From contig CANQUM010000013.1 of NCBI GenBank assembly GCA_947627045.1, positions 1 through 48,211 of the forward strand: DNA of 48,211 nucleotides, read 5' to 3'. The DNA is from an uncultured Clostridia bacterium (GTDB taxonomy: Bacteria; Bacillota; Clostridia; Oscillospirales; Ruminococcaceae). A program made the position numbers and the translations under genes. This document shows positions 1-11,680 of the stretch, piece after piece (the first letter of the stretch is position 1; each line of letters begins with the position of its first letter). The notes under the pieces are model-generated. The model saw only the letters and a list, made by a program, of their open reading frames with translations. It was not told the origin of the DNA and searched no databases.

Positions 1-76
1 TGCTTATTGCACATACACCGGCAGCACAAAGGTCAAGCAGTATAAGTACACAAGGGAATATGTATTGTTTTTTCAT
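1..76 (-). CDS. Partial small membrane protein of the prophage (C-terminus off the window)
   Basis: An ATG at 76 is preceded by a strong GGAGG ribosome site that overlaps the stop of the upstream methyltransferase gene. The reading frame stays open to the window edge for 25 codons. The visible residues begin MKKQYIFPC and continue as a hydrophobic segment, so this looks like the first membrane span of a short phage protein. Short proteins with this kind of start are common in Clostridia prophages, from memory, but no function is known. It is translated in the same direction as the early phage genes to its right, 14 bases after the methyltransferase. Confidence 0.6.
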   Translation of the reverse strand, partial: MKKQYIFPCVLILLDLCAAGVCAIS

Positions 77-89
77 TATGCCATGCCTC

Positions 90-857
90 CTAAAACAATC
101 TTGTCTGAGCCATTACAGATTGAATACGCTCATTTGCAACATTGAACCATTTTTCGTCTCTCTCAAAGCCTATAAAATTCAATCCTACTTCATAAGCCGC
201 TTCTAAAAATGTACCGCTGCCTACGAACATATCAAGTAATAAATCATCTTTTTTAGCACTTTGCGTAATCATATCAACTGCTATATCCAAACGTTTTTGA
301 GTAGGGTGTTCTGTCCTTTCATTTCCTTGACAAATTGGCTTAATCCAGTAGCTGTGTTTTTGCCCTTTTTCAATGTTCCAATAATGTTTCGCACCGCTTG
401 TTTTTGTAGCAAATATGCAAAACTCTGTACTTGACATATAGCCAACCTTGAACACTTGTGGACAAGGATTGGTTTTACACCATACAAGTGTGCTTCTTAC
501 GTGATACCCTATGTCTTTCAGTATGTATTCTATAAATGACACCTCGTTTTTTGGACACCACATATACATACTTCCGCTTTCCTTTAATTTGCTATATGCC
601 AAAGTAAATACATGATTAATAAACTCAAAATAATCTTTATTATCAGCAAAGAAATCCCAGCCACCAAAATCAAAATTTAATTCTTTAGACCTTTTACCAC
701 GTTTCAATCTTCTATTATCAATTGACGAACGGTCTATTTTTTTGTTTTGACTGATATTATACGGAATATCTGTCATGATAATATCAACAGTATTATCACC
801 TATATTTAAAATTCCTTCCATGCAATCCATATTGTAGAGTTTATTTAGTTCAAGCAT
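90..857 (-). CDS. Site-specific DNA methyltransferase, beta class (prophage)
   Basis: This 255-residue protein should transfer a methyl group from S-adenosylmethionine to an adenine N6 or cytosine N4 in a specific DNA site. The catalytic motif IV appears early as DIPY (residues 30-33, a variant of DPPY) and the SAM-binding motif I follows late as FVGSG (211-215). This order defines the beta group (N6_N4_Mtase family). The length is normal for a solitary phage enzyme with a small recognition domain. No restriction gene lies beside it, so it probably protects phage DNA or modifies its expression. Its start overlaps the end of the 845-1093 gene by 13 bases, which suggests translational coupling. 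The target sequence cannot be read from the protein. Confidence 0.9.
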   Translation of the reverse strand: MLELNKLYNMDCMEGILNIGDNTVDIIMTDIPYNISQNKKIDRSSIDNRRLKRGKRSKELNFDFGGWDFFADNKDYFEFINHVFTLAYSKLKESGSMYMWCPKNEVSFIEYILKDIGYHVRSTLVWCKTNPCPQVFKVGYMSSTEFCIFATKTSGAKHYWNIEKGQKHSYWIKPICQGNERTEHPTQKRLDIAVDMITQSAKKDDLLLDMFVGSGTFLEAAYEVGLNFIGFERDEKWFNVANERIQSVMAQTRLF

Positions 858-5305: not shown

Positions 5306-5437
5306 TTTTATCACCTCCTCGCTTATTTGTTTTCTTGCCTTTCCGTTCTGCGATACTGAAAAGGACAAAAAAGATAATAGTTGAAAGAATTGTGGTTATA
5401 ATTTTTCACACCTCTTTTCTATTAATGTAAAAAAATA

Positions 5438-5467
5438 TTGACAAAAGTTAGCATAATGTGATACATT
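5438..5467 (+). promoter_or_regulatory. Promoter of the structured RNA
   Basis: TTGACA at 5438-5443 and TACATT at 5462-5467 are separated by 18 bases. A TG one base before the -10 box makes it an extended -10 promoter. It points right, away from the excisionase-like gene and antisense to the early operon between the Cro-like and excisionase-like genes. Confidence 0.6.
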
Positions 5468-5473
5468 GTATAT

Positions 5474-5805
5474 GCCTTATGGCAATTTCTAAAAAAGGAG
5501 GTCTTTATATTGACCAAACTTTTGATTTTGCCTGTTCCTGAAATATAAACACATCTATATGGTGTGTTTATATTGTCAATGCATAAGGGCATTGTTAAGT
5601 GCTGAACTAAAACAGCCTAAGTGAGACGGCTTGTGATAGAAACAGCTAGAGTCATTGGCTGTGAGATTTTTATATTGATATCCAGAGGTGCTGACCTCGT
5701 AAAAAAAGCGTAATGATGTTGTATAAAAATCTCTGCAACAAGTTTCAGGTAAATAAATTTGGGGAAAGAACATTCAAAATGACTCTTTGGATGTTTTTTC
5801 TTGTT
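5474..5805 (+). ncRNA. Candidate structured RNA with a 12-codon leader peptide
   Basis: Downstream of the 5438 promoter there is no long ORF. There is a strong AAGGAGG site (5496-5502) and a TTG-start mini-ORF 5510-5548 encoding (M)TKLLILPVPEI. Five closely packed hairpins follow: a perfect 11-bp stem 5543-5553/5563-5573; a perfect 6-bp stem 5577-5582/5589-5594; 4-bp 5614-5617/5628-5631; 5-bp 5642-5646/5658-5662; and a perfect 12-bp stem 5663-5674/5722-5733 that encloses a 5-bp hairpin 5685-5689/5694-5698. The unit ends in a terminator at 5769-5799. I do not recognise a known RNA family. It may be an antisense regulator of the leftward early transcript. Confidence 0.5.
5769..5805 (+). terminator. 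Intrinsic terminator of the structured RNA
   Basis: A 10-bp stem with one G-U pair (AACATTCAAA 5769-5778 with TTTGGATGTT 5786-5795, 7-base loop) is followed by TTTTTTCTTGTTTTT. It ends just before the stop codon of the opposing Cro-like gene. Confidence 0.7.
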
Positions 5806-5817
5806 TTTAATGTAGAC

Positions 5818-6033
5818 TTAAATGTCTACATAGTCGGCAAAAAAAATATTGTCTCTTTCTTCACTTGTAAGATGAAGAATATCAGCAAGCTTCTTAACTT
5901 CAGATGCTTTAAAGTCTTTTTTTCCAGACAACTTGTTATACAATCCTTGTCTTGTTAATCCAAGCAACTCGGCAATATCACTTTTAGATATGTTGCTAGA
6001 ATTAATTTTATCTAATAACAATGTAGCATTCAT
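5818..6033 (-). CDS. Cro-like HTH regulator of the prophage
   Basis: A 71-residue protein. The start at 6033 (MNATLLLDKIN) is chosen over the longer frame because AGGAGGTGAT lies 4-5 bases upstream. Residues 13-45 form a helix-turn-helix (ISKSDIAELLGLTRQGLYNKL) of the XRE/Cro type, and the C-terminal helix ends in FFADYVDI. It diverges from the CI-like repressor across an operator-rich gap, the standard layout of a lysis/lysogeny switch. It likely binds the operators at 6090-6210 to turn down the repressor promoter. Confidence 0.75.
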   Translation of the reverse strand: MNATLLLDKINSSNISKSDIAELLGLTRQGLYNKLSGKKDFKASEVKKLADILHLTSEERDNIFFADYVDI

Positions 6034-6079
6034 TTTATCACCTCCTGTTGGTATATCCAAATTTATCTACCGTGTTTTT

Positions 6080-6244: not shown

Positions 6245-6730
6245 ATGACGGTTGGTGAAAGAATTAGAGAAGCAAGATTAAAAAAAGGATATTCACAATC
6301 TGAACTAGCAAAATTGTTAGGATATAAATCACGCTCATCAATTAATAAGATAGAAGTTGATGGTAGGGACATTCCAAGAAGTAGTATTGTTCAGTTTGCA
6401 AAAATTCTTGGAGTAACACCATCGTTTCTTATGGGCTGGGAAGATGATGATAAACAAGCTAATAAAGTTAATACTTTAGGTAAGTTAGAAATATCGCCTC
6501 ACGAAATACAGCTTGTATTGTCCTACAGAAATAAACCTGAGTTACAGCAAGTGATTGATAAGTTGTTAGATATTGAAAATGACAAACAAAATTTAAAAAA
6601 AAATAAGTTAGTTACTGTATATAAAGCTGCTCGTAGTGAAAATAACAAAGAGCAAGATGGCTATATTCAAATTACACAGGAACAGATTGATAGTCTCATA
6701 AATGCGCCTGAAACTGACGACGATTTTTAA
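6245..6730 (+). CDS. CI-like phage repressor (XRE family)
   Basis: A 161-residue protein with an N-terminal XRE helix-turn-helix at about residues 4-60 (GERIREARLKKGYSQSELAKLLG ending near FLMGWED). The remainder is a hydrophilic helical tail. It lacks the serine-lysine self-cleavage domain of lambda CI, so induction probably works another way. It is the rightward gene of the immunity region, with a GGAAGGTG site 7 bases before ATG, and should hold the leftward early promoter shut in the lysogen. A candidate antisense RNA begins just downstream of it. Confidence 0.85.
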   Translation: MTVGERIREARLKKGYSQSELAKLLGYKSRSSINKIEVDGRDIPRSSIVQFAKILGVTPSFLMGWEDDDKQANKVNTLGKLEISPHEIQLVLSYRNKPELQQVIDKLLDIENDKQNLKKNKLVTVYKAARSENNKEQDGYIQITQEQIDSLINAPETDDDF

Positions 6731-6872: not shown

Positions 6873-7964
6873 ATGAAAAAAAGACTAATTAACATTATAA
6901 TTTTACTCGTCATGATGCTTAGTTTTACTGCTAGTCCTTCGAGTGCACTGGAAACTGTACAAAACCTATACACTAAAAAAACATATATATCACTTGGGCA
7001 AACATGCAAGGGTACAATAGAGCCTAATGGAAATAATGAATATTATTATGTGTTTTCAATTCCAACCGCACAAAAAGTCAGAATCTATATCGGTAATTAC
7101 AAAAAATTAAATGATAATTATAGCGGTTTCTATTTATTTGAATCGGACGATATAATAACACACTATAAGGATTATACTTATATATCTAAACATTCTTTAG
7201 AAACTTACAATATCTTATCTGAATTTAAAAATCCAAGTGCCTATTCATTTAACTTAAATCATCTTAAAATTAATACTACTACTGACGGTACAGGATATAT
7301 TGATAAATTTTTGCCCATAGGAACATATTATTTGGGCATAGAATCTTTTTCAAATACGAACATAAGTTATTCCGTAAACGTTTCAGACATGCCTAAATCA
7401 GCTTTACAGATGTCTGCGAAAAAAGCTATGGAAAAAGCAAAAATCAAAAAGCTTAAAGTTAAAAGTAAAACCAATAATAAAATTACTGTAGCATGGAAGA
7501 GGATAAAAAAAGCTAATGGGTATCAGGTTCAGATTTCTAAAAATAAACGATTTAAAAATAAAGTATTGAAAAAAATTTCACCGCAAGGGTGGTTTTATAT
7601 AAATAAAACAAAAAAATTAACAATTAAAAATCTAAAAAGCGGAACGAAATATTACATAAGAGTTAGAGCGTATGCAACATATAAAAATGTTTACGATAAT
7701 AAGAAAAGGTTATATGGTCCGTGGAGTAAAGTTAAATCAGTAAAGACAAAGGCATTAGTAAAGACAAAGAAAACGACTAAAAAGGTAAGTCATACTACTT
7801 CAGCTATACCATATGGTTTCACTTATGTATTAAATTCGGATTCTATGAAAGTGCATATAAGTGGCTGCAGAACATTTAAGTACGAAAGTCAATATCCGAC
7901 GACTGATGATTTAGATTGGGCTTTGCGTAATGGCTATTCCTTATGCGGAGTATGTTTTAGATAA
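6873..7964 (+). CDS. Secreted Fn3-domain protein carried by the prophage (possible lysogenic-conversion gene)
   Basis: A 363-residue protein with a clear signal peptide (residues 1-25, ending SPSSALE). Residues 30-170 form a beta-rich region of unknown type. Residues about 185-290 are the lysine-rich fibronectin-III-like module also seen in the proteins at 14353, 22506 and 42509 (KIKKLKVKS, ITVAWKRI, GYQVQISKN, YYIRVRAY, GPWSKVK). The C-terminus has a short cysteine motif, VHISGCRTF ... YSLCGVC, which resembles the HxxxC...CxxC tail of some secreted nuclease-family proteins and may bind zinc. AGGAGG lies 9 bases upstream of the start. Its place between repressor and integrase, expressed in the lysogen, is typical of phage cargo. 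Confidence 0.75.
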   Translation: MKKRLINIIILLVMMLSFTASPSSALETVQNLYTKKTYISLGQTCKGTIEPNGNNEYYYVFSIPTAQKVRIYIGNYKKLNDNYSGFYLFESDDIITHYKDYTYISKHSLETYNILSEFKNPSAYSFNLNHLKINTTTDGTGYIDKFLPIGTYYLGIESFSNTNISYSVNVSDMPKSALQMSAKKAMEKAKIKKLKVKSKTNNKITVAWKRIKKANGYQVQISKNKRFKNKVLKKISPQGWFYINKTKKLTIKNLKSGTKYYIRVRAYATYKNVYDNKKRLYGPWSKVKSVKTKALVKTKKTTKKVSHTTSAIPYGFTYVLNSDSMKVHISGCRTFKYESQYPTTDDLDWALRNGYSLCGVCFR

Positions 7965-8073: not shown

Positions 8074-8112
8074 GCATAACATTTTTTGTATGTCAAGATA
8101 GGAGAAAAAATA

Positions 8113-9273
8113 ATGGGAAAGACGAAAAGCAGGGCTAACGGAGACGGCACTTTTTTCTATAATGAAACTAAAAAACTGTGGGTAGGACAGATAACTTTAG
8201 GCGTTCAGGATAACGGCAAGCCAAAAAGAGTAACTAAGTATGGAAAAACAAGAAAAGAAGTCAAAACCAAGATTGAGGAATACAAGTCAGAGCTTGGCGG
8301 TAGGGAAGTACCGAACAAGAATAGCATTACACTAGTTGAGCTAATGGAGCAACTTGCCCAACAGAGCTATGATTTAAACGAAATATCAGAGTCAACATAT
8401 TACCGAAAAAAAGAGACAATTAAGATATATAAAAAGCATAATATTTCAAATATACCTATTCAAAGGCTTACTGAGCAAGACGTGCTAGAGTTTTATAAAT
8501 CAATTACAAACTATTCAAATTCTGTAATAGGGAAGCTAAGCGGAATTTTAAAGTCCACACTGAAAGAAGCTATACGGTTGCGAATAATCAATGTGAATGT
8601 TGCAGAATATGCAAAGCTACCCAAATCTGATAAGCCGGATAAAAAGGTAGAAGCGTTTACAATAGACGAGCAGAAAGAGTTAATAAAGGTATTAAGTACA
8701 GAAAAGGTTTTATATAAAAATCAGTTGTTACTTAGTATGTATACAGGAATGAGAATGGGCGAGATAAACGCCTTAACTATTGATTGTATTGATTTAGATA
8801 ATAATAGGTTAGAAATTAAGCGTACCATAGCACGAGGAGAAAAAGGACGTCCGATCTTAGGTAAGACGGCTAAGACCAAAGCCGGACAAAGAACAATAAT
8901 GCTCAATGACATAGCCAAAAGGATTATTGAAGCTGCTCTAAAAGAAGCAAAGGAAAACGAAAACAACTTGATTTTTTTAGATAAACGTGGTAAACTAATA
9001 TCAACAGTTCAAGTCAACAGTGAATTTAAAAGGTTTTGCCAAAAACATGACATCGGAAAAGGCTGGAACGTAAATCAACATATGTTAAGGCATACTTATG
9101 CAACTAGATGTATAGAAAGCGGAATGCCTGCAACAGTTCTACAAAAAATACTAGGACATACAGATATAAGTACTACATTAAACACTTATTGTGATGTTTT
9201 TGCAGAGTATGAAAGGCAGAATGTAGATCAAAGTTACGACTATTTTGTCAAGTCAGGGCTTGTATTGCAATAA
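8113..9273 (+). CDS. int: Tyrosine recombinase / phage integrase
   Basis: A 386-residue integrase. The start at 8113 (MGKTKSRANGDG) has GGAGA 8 bases upstream, while the longer frame from 8086 has none. Domains: an N-terminal AP2-like arm-binding domain (about 8-62), a SAM-like core-binding domain (about 70-165), and a catalytic domain (about 180-375). The active-site set is complete: R214 (TGMRMGE), H323 and R326 (HMLRHTYAT), H349 (LGHTD) and nucleophile Y359 (NTYCDV). It cuts and joins attP/attB sites through a 3'-phosphotyrosine. It lies at the right end of the element and reads outward, so attR should lie shortly downstream (9274-9750). The partner att site is outside the window. Confidence 0.95.
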   Translation: MGKTKSRANGDGTFFYNETKKLWVGQITLGVQDNGKPKRVTKYGKTRKEVKTKIEEYKSELGGREVPNKNSITLVELMEQLAQQSYDLNEISESTYYRKKETIKIYKKHNISNIPIQRLTEQDVLEFYKSITNYSNSVIGKLSGILKSTLKEAIRLRIINVNVAEYAKLPKSDKPDKKVEAFTIDEQKELIKVLSTEKVLYKNQLLLSMYTGMRMGEINALTIDCIDLDNNRLEIKRTIARGEKGRPILGKTAKTKAGQRTIMLNDIAKRIIEAALKEAKENENNLIFLDKRGKLISTVQVNSEFKRFCQKHDIGKGWNVNQHMLRHTYATRCIESGMPATVLQKILGHTDISTTLNTYCDVFAEYERQNVDQSYDYFVKSGLVLQ

Positions 9274-9752: not shown

Positions 9753-10553
9753 ATGAACTACTGGACTAAAATAAGTGAAGAATTTGCTTCACAAAGAAAT
9801 TATTTAGATGAATTATATAAAGTTTATCCTATTTCGCCAAATTTAAGGCGAGAAATATCTAAAGAAAAAGAAAAGAATATAAAACTTGCATATGATTCTA
9901 AGAATAACATTGAATTAATAAAGCAATTACTTTCATTAGAATTGTTCCCAATAAAAGATTCTTATGTCGCTTTTTTAAAAAGAGATTTATCTGCTATTAA
10001 TAGGAATCCAGAAACTATTAATAGATTAGCTGGTAATCTTTATCAAATGGGTTTTGATGAAATTATAGAAAAATGTACACAACCTAAAGAAACTAATAGA
10101 CAAATTGGTCCTATGTTTAAACAGTGGATAGATAAAGGAATGATTGGTGTAGAAGTTATAAAAAATCAGGAGGATTTTTTAAACTCTAATTCAAATTGCG
10201 TTTTTAATTCATCAGATATGGAAATGGAAAAATTTGCTCATACATATTTAGGATATAATAGAGAAAAAGGGATTGACTTTATTGCTAAATTTAATAATAA
10301 GTATATTTTTGCAGAAGCAAAATTTTTATCTGACTTTGGAGGACATCAAAATGCTCAATTTGATGATGCAGTTAGTACAATGAGTGCACCTATAGAAAAT
10401 AAATTAGTAGAAAATGACGTAATACCAATTTCAATTTTAGATGGTGTACTTTATATAAAAGGAAACAATAAAATGTATAGATACTTAGAAGAACATCCAG
10501 ATCAATTAATAATGTCTTCACTAGTGTTAAGGGAGTATCTATATTCAATTTAA
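9753..10553 (+). CDS. Type II restriction endonuclease (PD-(D/E)XK)
   Basis: A 266-residue protein directly upstream of a DNA methyltransferase. The nuclease core is visible near residues 165-205: GID (D175) followed by FAEAK (E188, K190), a textbook D...ExK site on adjacent strands. The N-terminal 120 residues are helical and probably help recognise DNA. The overall layout reminds me of Tsp45I-like enzymes, but this is from memory. Expected role: cut unmethylated invading DNA at the site protected by the downstream enzyme. Codon use is very A/T-rich compared with neighbours, which suggests horizontal transfer. GGGGG at 9741-9745 serves as the ribosome site. Confidence 0.75.
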   Translation: MNYWTKISEEFASQRNYLDELYKVYPISPNLRREISKEKEKNIKLAYDSKNNIELIKQLLSLELFPIKDSYVAFLKRDLSAINRNPETINRLAGNLYQMGFDEIIEKCTQPKETNRQIGPMFKQWIDKGMIGVEVIKNQEDFLNSNSNCVFNSSDMEMEKFAHTYLGYNREKGIDFIAKFNNKYIFAEAKFLSDFGGHQNAQFDDAVSTMSAPIENKLVENDVIPISILDGVLYIKGNNKMYRYLEEHPDQLIMSSLVLREYLYSI

Positions 10554-10570
10554 CATTTGGGAGAAAATAT

Positions 10571-11680
10571 ATGGAGTTAGTGTTTGAAGGTAAAAAAAAT
10601 AGAAAAGATGTTATAAATGATGCTGAAAAAATGTGTTCACAATATTCATTAAATGTTGAAAATGACAAATCGATTTTATTTAAAGGGGATAATATAAAAG
10701 TCTTATCATTATTACAAAAGAAATATAAAGGGAAAATTGACTTAATATATATTGATCCACCTTTTAATACAAATCAAGATTTTATAATGGATACCGAAAG
10801 GGCTAACTCAATCAGTTATTCAAAAAGTGGTAAAATTGCATATTCTGATAAGATGACAATGGAACAATATTTGGAATTTATACGAGAAAGACTAATTTTG
10901 ATGTACGAATTATTATCAGATAGAGGCTCAATATATTTTCATATTGATTATAAAATAGGTCATTATATAAAGATTATAATGGATGAAATTTTTGGAGAAC
11001 AAAATTTTAAAAATGATATAGCCAGAATAAAATCAAATCCCAAAAATTTTTATAGAAAAGCGTATGGAAATGAAAAAGATTCAATATTATTTTATGCGAA
11101 ACAATACGATAAAAACATTTGGAATGATATTAAAATTCCATTAGATAAAGAAGAAATAAATAAAAGGTTTAAGAAAACAGATGATAATGGTAGAAAATAT
11201 ACAACAATTCCTTTGCACGCACCGGGGGAAACTAAAGGAGTAACAGGACAGCCATGGAGAAATATGTCTGTTCCTAAAGGAAGACATTGGAGAAAAGATC
11301 CAAAAGAATTTGACAAATTGGATAACGAAGGTAGAATTGAATGGTCATCAAAAGGAAATCCTAGAATAATTAAATATGCAGATGAACATGAAGGAAAGAA
11401 AATACAAGACATATGGAAATTTAAAGATCCGCAAAAGCCAATCTATCCTACAGAAAAAAATGAGTTGCTTTTAGAACAGATCATTAAGCAATCATCCACT
11501 GAAGACAGTATTATTATGGATTGTTTTGCAGGAAGTGGTACAACATTAAATGCAGCATTCAATTTGAATAGAAAATGGATTGGAGTTGATGAATCTAATT
11601 TAGCAATAGATACTATAAAAAAGAAAAGGATAGGAGATTATTTATATATAGATATTGAAAAAACGACATTGAAAATATAG
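10571..11680 (+). CDS. Type II DNA methyltransferase (adenine-specific, beta class)
   Basis: A 369-residue enzyme. Motif IV is DPPF (62-65, in YIDPPFNTN) and motif I is FAGSG (319-323), so the order is IV...I (beta group). A long central region (about 150-290), including the PGETKGVTGQPW stretch, is the target-recognition insert. It is related in style to the Mod subunits of type III systems, but no res helicase gene is present. It should protect the host by methylating the site cut by the 9753 enzyme. It starts 17 bases after that gene, so both share one transcript. The recognition sequence is unknown. Confidence 0.88.
   Translation: MELVFEGKKNRKDVINDAEKMCSQYSLNVENDKSILFKGDNIKVLSLLQKKYKGKIDLIYIDPPFNTNQDFIMDTERANSISYSKSGKIAYSDKMTMEQYLEFIRERLILMYELLSDRGSIYFHIDYKIGHYIKIIMDEIFGEQNFKNDIARIKSNPKNFYRKAYGNEKDSILFYAKQYDKNIWNDIKIPLDKEEINKRFKKTDDNGRKYTTIPLHAPGETKGVTGQPWRNMSVPKGRHWRKDPKEFDKLDNEGRIEWSSKGNPRIIKYADEHEGKKIQDIWKFKDPQKPIYPTEKNELLLEQIIKQSSTEDSIIMDCFAGSGTTLNAAFNLNRKWIGVDESNLAIDTIKKKRIGDYLYIDIEKTTLKI

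What the first reader, a model, noticed from the sequence alone, without database searches (positions are those of the whole stretch)
5438..5805. Prophage transcription unit with a mini-ORF and five packed hairpins, no long ORF
A complete unit is visible in the gap between the Cro-like and excisionase-like genes: extended -10 promoter, strong AAGGAGG site with a 12-codon TTG-start peptide, five consecutive stems including perfect 11-bp and 12-bp ones, and a terminator with a T run. It is read antisense to the leftward early operon. The stop codon of the peptide lies inside the first stem, so translation could control folding. I do not recognise a known RNA family. Of everything in the window, this looks most like an undescribed element.
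Basis: partly seen in the sequence, partly recalled or inferred. Interest (0 to 1): 0.72.

Follow-up and report, generated by a model that had tools for sequence, protein, structure and literature searches.

The report
FuFi-1 prophage RNA with ribosome-binding 5' domain
A viral genome hidden in a bacterium carries a gene for a knotted RNA of a known but unexplained family, and comparison with relatives shows that this RNA is larger than catalogued, with a built-in ribosome landing site and a tiny reading frame of about 12 codons at its front.

Summary
The unit is real, but its RNA family is known: 5574-5800 (+) matches Rfam FuFi-1 (RF02986) at 122.5 bits, cut-off 59.6. Neither 'FuFi-1' nor 'RF02986' occurs in the held papers.

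The unit is larger than the Rfam model. The roughly 100 bases before it (leader, AAGGAGG site, mini-ORF) recur in the 40 elements analysed, the window included. The mini-ORF motif alone retrieves the core: of 43 viral stretches, 18 have it, the same 18 that show a ribosome site plus start codon. Relatives give strong covariation for the nested stems and for two long-range contacts: P4 loop with terminator loop (7 of 7 pairs double-changed) and a P2-loop pseudoknot. The + strand is the functional one (G-U 138, A-C 24). An extended -10 precedes 31 of 40 (controls 20 of 1120). Codon positions vary alike, so the mini-ORF looks kept as a ribosome site rather than for its peptide. No conserved antiterminator was found.

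Best reading: a lysogeny-module RNA, read against the early operon, that loads ribosomes at its 5' end. Mechanism and function are inferred.

The parts
5438..5467 (+). promoter, extended -10 type
   Evidence: TTGACA-18-TACATT with TG; TGnTAnnnT at this place in 31 of 40 elements, 20 of 1120 control windows
5472..5480 (+). P0 5' strand, close to the predicted RNA 5' end; pairs with 5583-5592 (one bulged base)
   Evidence: duplex; swap test native -8.39, swapped -7.39, p 0.00045
5481..5485 (+). P0a 5' strand GGCAA, pairs with TTGCC 5528-5532 inside the mini-ORF
   Evidence: swap test native -9.60, swapped -8.05
5495..5501 (+). Shine-Dalgarno AAGGAGG
   Evidence: sequence; SD-like sites in the relatives
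5500..5515 (+). P0b hairpin GGTC/GACC around the start codon
   Evidence: fold -6.0 kcal/mol; family swap test p 0.00015
5510..5548 (+). mini-ORF, TTG start, 12 codons, MTKLLILPVPEI
5542..5574 (+). 12-bp hairpin holding the stop codon (arms 5542-5553 and 5563-5574)
   Evidence: specific to this prophage and its near twin (by eye)
5574..5800 (+). FuFi-1 RNA core (RF02986)
   Evidence: 122.5 bits, E 2.6e-26; own model R1, 88.5 bits
5583..5592 (+). P0 3' strand
5601..5616 (+). P2 hairpin (5601-5604/5613-5616); loop bases 5607-5611 form pseudoknot PK-A with 5758-5762
   Evidence: find position
5629..5743 (+). P3 (5629-5634/5738-5743) enclosing P4 and P5
5642..5662 (+). P4 hairpin; loop region 5648-5656 is perfectly complementary to terminator loop 5778-5786 (KL)
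   Evidence: (I17); covariation
5663..5733 (+). P5, 12-bp stem 5663-5674/5722-5733 with inserted module
5685..5709 (+). H-type pseudoknot candidate with A-rich linker, GAGGTGCTGACCTCGTAAAAAAAGC
   Evidence: pattern in 19 of 39 elements, about 1.5 expected from shuffles
5758..5762 (+). PK-A 3' strand TTTGG
5762..5802 (+). terminator hairpin with T run; its loop is the KL partner
5818..6060 (-). Cro-like HTH gene, on the opposite strand downstream
6245..6730 (+). repressor-like HTH gene in the direction of the RNA
   Evidence: HTH_3 50.6 bits; phage regulator families

Best explanation
The feature is a full-length FuFi-1 RNA of a prophage: a self-contained RNA gene of about 330 nt with its own promoter and terminator, read in the direction of the repressor gene and against the leftward early genes. 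It works as a folded RNA rather than as a messenger for a useful peptide. Its 5' domain holds a Shine-Dalgarno and a start codon among helices P0, P0a and P0b. A ribosome that initiates there and reads about 12 codons must melt P0a, so ribosome loading is coupled to whether the 5' domain closes onto the pseudoknotted 3' core, which is held by the P2-loop pseudoknot and by the contact between the P4 loop and the terminator loop. The finished RNA most likely acts in trans, on the ribosome or another partner, in prophage maintenance. Supported by computation here: family membership, functional strand, core fold with both long-range contacts, conserved promoter, ribosome site and mini-ORF, and place in the lysogeny module. 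Supported less strongly: P0, P0a, P0b. Inferred: transcription, ribosome loading, coupling of translation to folding, the trans role.
For: Rfam match. Covariation: 96.2% of cells paired in 17 rows and 95.4% in 40 distinct rows, shuffles 78.4% and 68.4%, slid controls 32.5-45.8%. KL 7 of 7 pairs double-changed in both alignments; PK-A 2 of 5, then 4 of 5. G-U 138 against A-C 24 fixes the + strand. Swap tests for P0, P0a, KL, PK-A and P0b. In the 40 elements a frame of 11-32 codons, median 13, starts TTG 29, ATG 8, GTG 3; mean entropy at codon positions 1/2/3 is 0.55/0.58/0.58 bits over codons 2-9 of 35 frames in register. Extended -10 in 31 of 40, controls 20 of 1120. The mini-ORF motif alone finds the core in 18 of 43 stretches, 7 of which the core patterns had not found. 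No conserved antiterminator.
Against: No expression or ribosome data. The window's own minimum-energy fold prefers a local 5' hairpin to P0 and P0a. Swap-test p-values ignore relatedness; the native partner is best or tied-best in only 3 (P0), 4 (P0a), 7 (KL) and 6 (PK-A) of 40. The 40 elements were anchored by eye on the leader and mini-ORF, so their presence in all 40 is partly by selection. L019 (same sequence in L196) has the core without the 5' domain. P0b is weak or absent in L041, L078 and L124. KL is poor in L234 and L229. No partner gene travels with the RNA. The trans role rests mainly on exclusion.
Confidence: 0.45

Rival explanations
1. Antisense regulator of the early operon: the RNA pairs with the leftward early transcript that runs through the same bases, or its transcription collides with it, and so dampens lytic genes (OOP-like, recalled).
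For: Nearest upstream ORF is leftward in 24 of 28 loci and the first downstream ORF in 22 of 32; own promoter and terminator.
Against: A plain antisense needs no internal pseudoknots, no KL and no ribosome site, yet these are the conserved parts. In 5 of the 21 loci with a downstream + HTH gene no leftward ORF lies between.
Confidence: 0.2
2. Conditional leader: ribosome movement on the mini-ORF decides whether RNA polymerase passes the terminator and reads through anti-cro into the repressor gene, as a PRE-like establishment transcript (recalled parallel).
For: Orientation towards a + strand HTH gene in 21 of 26 loci with at least 1300 nt of sequence downstream; mini-ORF plus terminator, as in uORF attenuators (passages).
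Against: No conserved antiterminator: terminator strands pair no better with their own upstream RNA than with that of other members, p 0.93 and 0.58. The terminator loop is built into the final fold through KL. A TTGACA/TATAAT-like pair stands before the window's repressor gene (read, not scanned).
Confidence: 0.12
3. The peptide is the product: a dual-function RNA or small toxin-like system making MTKLLxLPxx.
For: Open frame after an SD-like site in the 40 elements; codon 5 always Leu and codon 8 always Pro in the 35 frames in register.
Against: Codon positions vary alike. P0a and P0b overlap these codons. In L041 and L078 the TGCCCTGTTCC stretch is kept in another frame relative to the start region, and in L269 the TTGGTC/GACCAA hairpin is replaced by TTGCTT/AAGCAA with loss of MTKLL. 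Frame ends vary from 11 to 32 codons.
Confidence: 0.1
4. A chance cluster of hairpins or decayed repeats.
For: Simple promoter matches are common in this AT-rich stretch: 4 found, 2.1 expected.
Against: Rfam E 2.6e-26; covariation; fold z -7.67.
Confidence: 0.01

Closest known systems
FuFi-1 RNA (Rfam RF02986; first described by Weinberg and colleagues 2017, recalled, paper not held)
   Same: The 3' part of the window RNA is a member by score, fold and conserved letters.
   Different: The Rfam model begins at 5574. The 5' domain with ribosome site and mini-ORF lies outside it, and the structure line printed by cmscan has nested pairs only. Whether the original description marks the pseudoknots or the 5' part could not be checked.
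GOLLD and ROOL RNAs
   Same: Folded RNAs of unknown function from phages and prophages with covarying loop contacts; the paper also cites ribosomes binding GOLLD in pull-downs (passages of PMC12286853).
   Different: No match to their models at gathering; FuFi-1 is shorter and has a ribosome site. Oligomers not testable here.
tmRNA
   Same: A short reading frame within a folded RNA that has H-type pseudoknots; the A-rich module resembles tmRNA PK1 (recalled).
   Different: No tmRNA family match; it carries a Shine-Dalgarno site, which tmRNA lacks (recalled).
uORF attenuators such as the ilvB and fthC motifs (passages of PMC11109978)
   Same: SD, short ORF, terminator-like hairpin.
   Different: No conserved antiterminator; first downstream ORF on the other strand in 22 of 32 loci.
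OOP-type antisense RNAs of phage lysis-lysogeny regions (recalled)
   Same: RNA read against early genes beside the repressor region.
   Different: Much more structured, with conserved internal contacts and a ribosome site.

Membership tests
FuFi-1 RNA (RF02986) | Score above Rfam's gathering cut-off over the full model | tested here: met
   122.5 against 59.6 bits, model positions 1-175 of 175
FuFi-1 RNA (RF02986) | P1-P5 architecture with conserved unpaired letters and terminal hairpin | tested here: met
   alignment (some P1 pairs of the window are non-standard); model R1, built from 17 other members, finds the window at 88.5 bits
FuFi-1 RNA (RF02986) | Occurs in Firmicutes and Fusobacteria (recalled from the name) | tested here: met
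   L124 titled uncultured Clostridia, L109 Fournierella; L232 and L100 share stretches with Fusobacterium phages.
tmRNA | Match to a tmRNA model | tested here: not met
   none at gathering in the window or in 34 relatives' loci, none at E up to 1 in 5380-5860; ARAGORN was not run
GOLLD / ROOL / OLE | Match to the family model | tested here: not met
   none at gathering
GOLLD / ROOL / OLE | Homo-oligomer held by loop contacts | not testable with these tools
   KL covaries, but within or between chains cannot be told
uORF transcription attenuator | Alternative antiterminator pairing | tested here: not met
   native no better than swapped, 40 elements
uORF transcription attenuator | Co-directional gene directly downstream | tested here: not met
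   first downstream ORF on the opposite strand in 22 of 32 loci, including the window
OOP-type antisense RNA | Lies against early genes | tested here: met
   layout
OOP-type antisense RNA | Acts by duplex with the early transcript | not testable with these tools
   needs RNA experiments
Dual-function RNA / small toxin | Amino-acid-level conservation of the peptide | tested here: inconclusive
   codon positions equally variable, but only 8 codons in 35 related frames

The most novel reading that the evidence does not exclude
Full-length FuFi-1 is a phage RNA device that uses a real ribosome-binding site as its input rather than to make a product. A ribosome on the mini-ORF decides whether the 5' domain closes onto the pseudoknotted core, and the resulting RNA, possibly a homo-oligomer joined through the loop-loop contact as in GOLLD, acts on translation or on the choice between lysis and lysogeny. 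It would be a translation-sensing lysogeny RNA shared by phages of two phyla.
Probability: 0.2. Interest if true: 0.85.

Novelty: new member of a known kind. Interest (0 to 1): 0.5.

Why it matters
FuFi-1 is an orphan RNA family. The extended architecture gives it a testable handle: a defined promoter and 5' end, a ribosome site whose use can be measured, two covarying long-range contacts that can be broken and restored, and a fixed place in prophage control regions. If ribosome loading controls the fold, it would be an RNA-based way for temperate phages to read the host's translation state.

Tried and rejected
Literature: 'FuFi-1' and 'RF02986' gave no held paper; a looser search was swamped by unrelated words, 653 papers of which 20 were listed. 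The paper I recall as the first description is not held. Further searches gave no account of this RNA; passages only were seen of PMC8632094, PMC11109978, PMC7724050, PMC12286853 and PMC5643018. So 'not described' is limited to these searches.

Similarity searches of annotated phages and plasmids: the window stretch gave one short phage match of 67 bases, E 0.001, and no plasmid match; elements of L073 and L098 gave none. The three Fusobacterium phage stretches fetched held no full element; L276 had a 19.5-bit partial match.

Antiterminator test: negative. tmRNA: no model match. Peptide selection: no codon-position signal. In the middle domain of 12 long members, P6 (6 of 8 pairs double-changed) and S1 (2 of 4) covary, but S2 of the supposed pseudoknot has no double change among its 2 counted pairs, so that pseudoknot is not established. 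The idea that KL varies faster than other helices for specificity was dropped: by the counts, P1 changes at a similar rate.

Rows dropped: L064, L147 and L039 as false pattern hits in other sequence; L012 left out of the 40 although it has the frame; L019 has no 5' domain. A4, used, still holds two probable false rows (L011, L233:7616) and cut or misaligned rows (L007, L008, L012); by eye L007 and L008 have the KL complement in the sequences. Several weak genome matches (L004, L005, L010, L011, L265, L270) look like chance by eye.

Full report
What was checked. The sequence bears this out: promoter with TG before the -10 at 5438-5467, AAGGAGG at 5495-5501, a 12-codon ORF from TTG at 5510 to TAA at 5548, stop codon inside a perfect 12-bp stem, further stems, and a terminator-like hairpin at 5762-5802. 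The RNA 5472-5803 folds 7.67 standard deviations below its shuffles.

What it is. cmscan against Rfam 15 gives one match in the whole 48-kb window: FuFi-1, RF02986, at 5574-5800 (+), 122.5 bits against a cut-off of 59.6. The claim that no RNA family is known therefore falls. Neither the name nor the accession occurs in the held papers.

Relatives. FuFi-1 is scattered, as expected of prophages. Counting the window's own genome each time, matches at E up to 0.001 occurred in 5 of 297 genomes of the family (2 over the cut-off), 7 of 391 of the class (3 over), 4 of 398 of the phylum, 8 of 394 of the order and 2 of 15 of the genus; several of the weak ones look like chance. Of 34 relatives' loci given to Rfam, 30 pass the FuFi-1 cut-off; L003, L009, L012 and L269 do not. 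One genome, G012, has two tandem copies (100.1 and 83.7 bits).

The core fold. On 17 short members (A3) and on 40 distinct rows aligned by my own model (A4), 96.2% and 95.4% of cells are paired, against 78.4% and 68.4% in shuffles and 32.5-45.8% when the partners are slid. Two contacts lie outside the nested structure used for the model, so that model cannot have forced them: the P4 loop with the terminator loop (KL; 7 of 7 pairs double-changed in both alignments, 99.2% and 95.5% paired) and the P2 loop with the bases before the terminator (PK-A; 2 of 5, then 4 of 5 double-changed, 100% and 91.8% paired). In the window KL is 5648-5656 with 5778-5786, nine perfect pairs. G-U pairs outnumber A-C mismatches 138 to 24, which points to the + strand.

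The part Rfam does not cover. Upstream of the core stand a leader, an SD-like site and a start codon, most often TTG (29 of 40; ATG 8, GTG 3), opening a frame of 11-32 codons, median 13. The set of 40 was anchored by eye on this region. The stronger test is independent: the mini-ORF pattern alone, outside the Rfam model, hit 43 viral stretches; 18 of them (16 distinct elements) carry the core, and those 18 are the ones with both an SD flag and a start codon; the other 25 have no R1 match at E up to 0.01. Seven of the 18 had not been found by the core patterns. One core, L019, lacks the 5' domain. An extended -10 precedes the leader in 31 of 40 against 20 of 1120 control windows. Swap tests support P0 (p 0.00045), P0a (p 0.00005) and P0b (p 0.00015), with the caveat that they ignore relatedness and that the native partner is rarely the single best. 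Codon positions vary alike, and in a few members the frame or the hairpin letters change while the RNA features stay. I read this as a ribosome site under RNA-level constraint.

The middle. Members differ between mini-ORF and core: about 45-60 bases in some, up to about 217 in the long class, counted with a 28-base overlap. In 12 long members helix P6 covaries in 6 of 8 pairs and S1 in 2 of 4; the second helix of the presumed pseudoknot is not supported by double changes. An H-type pattern with an A-rich linker occurs in 19 of 39 members, about 1.5 expected; in the window it is 5685-5709. Its likeness to tmRNA PK1 is recalled, not tested.

Surroundings. The nearest upstream ORF is leftward in 24 of 28 loci, the first downstream ORF leftward in 22 of 32, and of 26 loci with at least 1300 bases of sequence downstream 21 have a + strand HTH gene (with my own simple ORF caller). 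In the window these are an HTH protein at 5818-6060 (-), an HTH repressor at 6245-6730 (+) and an integrase at 8086-9273. The RNA thus points towards the repressor and against the early genes.

How it may work. The terminator is not paired with a conserved antiterminator, and its loop is part of the final fold, which speaks for a finished RNA rather than a switchable leader. The ribosome site sits where translation must open P0a. I therefore prefer a stable RNA whose folding is coupled to ribosome loading, acting in trans in the lysogen. The antisense role is the main rival, and both may hold. Expression, ribosome binding and any partner are not shown.

Verdict. An ordinary member by family, but of an unexplained family whose described model covers only part of the unit. 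That the 5' part or the pseudoknots are undescribed is limited to the searches named.

Noticed in passing
window 9753-11680: Two adjacent + strand ORFs (266 and 369 aa) beyond the integrase look by eye like a restriction enzyme and a DNA methylase (DPPF motif); no family search was run on them.
   Followed up: no
window 6873-7964: A 363-aa protein with a signal-like start lies between repressor and integrase, a usual place for lysogenic cargo; only a weak PHROG match to a minor tail protein (20.2 bits).
   Followed up: partly
L109 3013-3298 and 3556-3815 (also in L002, L006): Two tandem FuFi-1 copies in one genome with different loop-loop sequences.
   Followed up: partly
L019 752-995: FuFi-1 core (138.8 bits) without the 5' domain; other sequence lies upstream.
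   Followed up: partly
L041 812-892, L073 10083-10163, L229 1551-1601: DUF3800-VII RNAs and a 6A RNA in the fetched stretches of three loci that also hold FuFi-1.
   Followed up: no
L276 6980-7025: Partial match (19.5 bits) to the 3' part of the core in Fusobacterium phage Funu2.
   Followed up: no
window 1-90: The contig starts inside the phage early region, so the rest of the prophage is not in the window.
   Followed up: no
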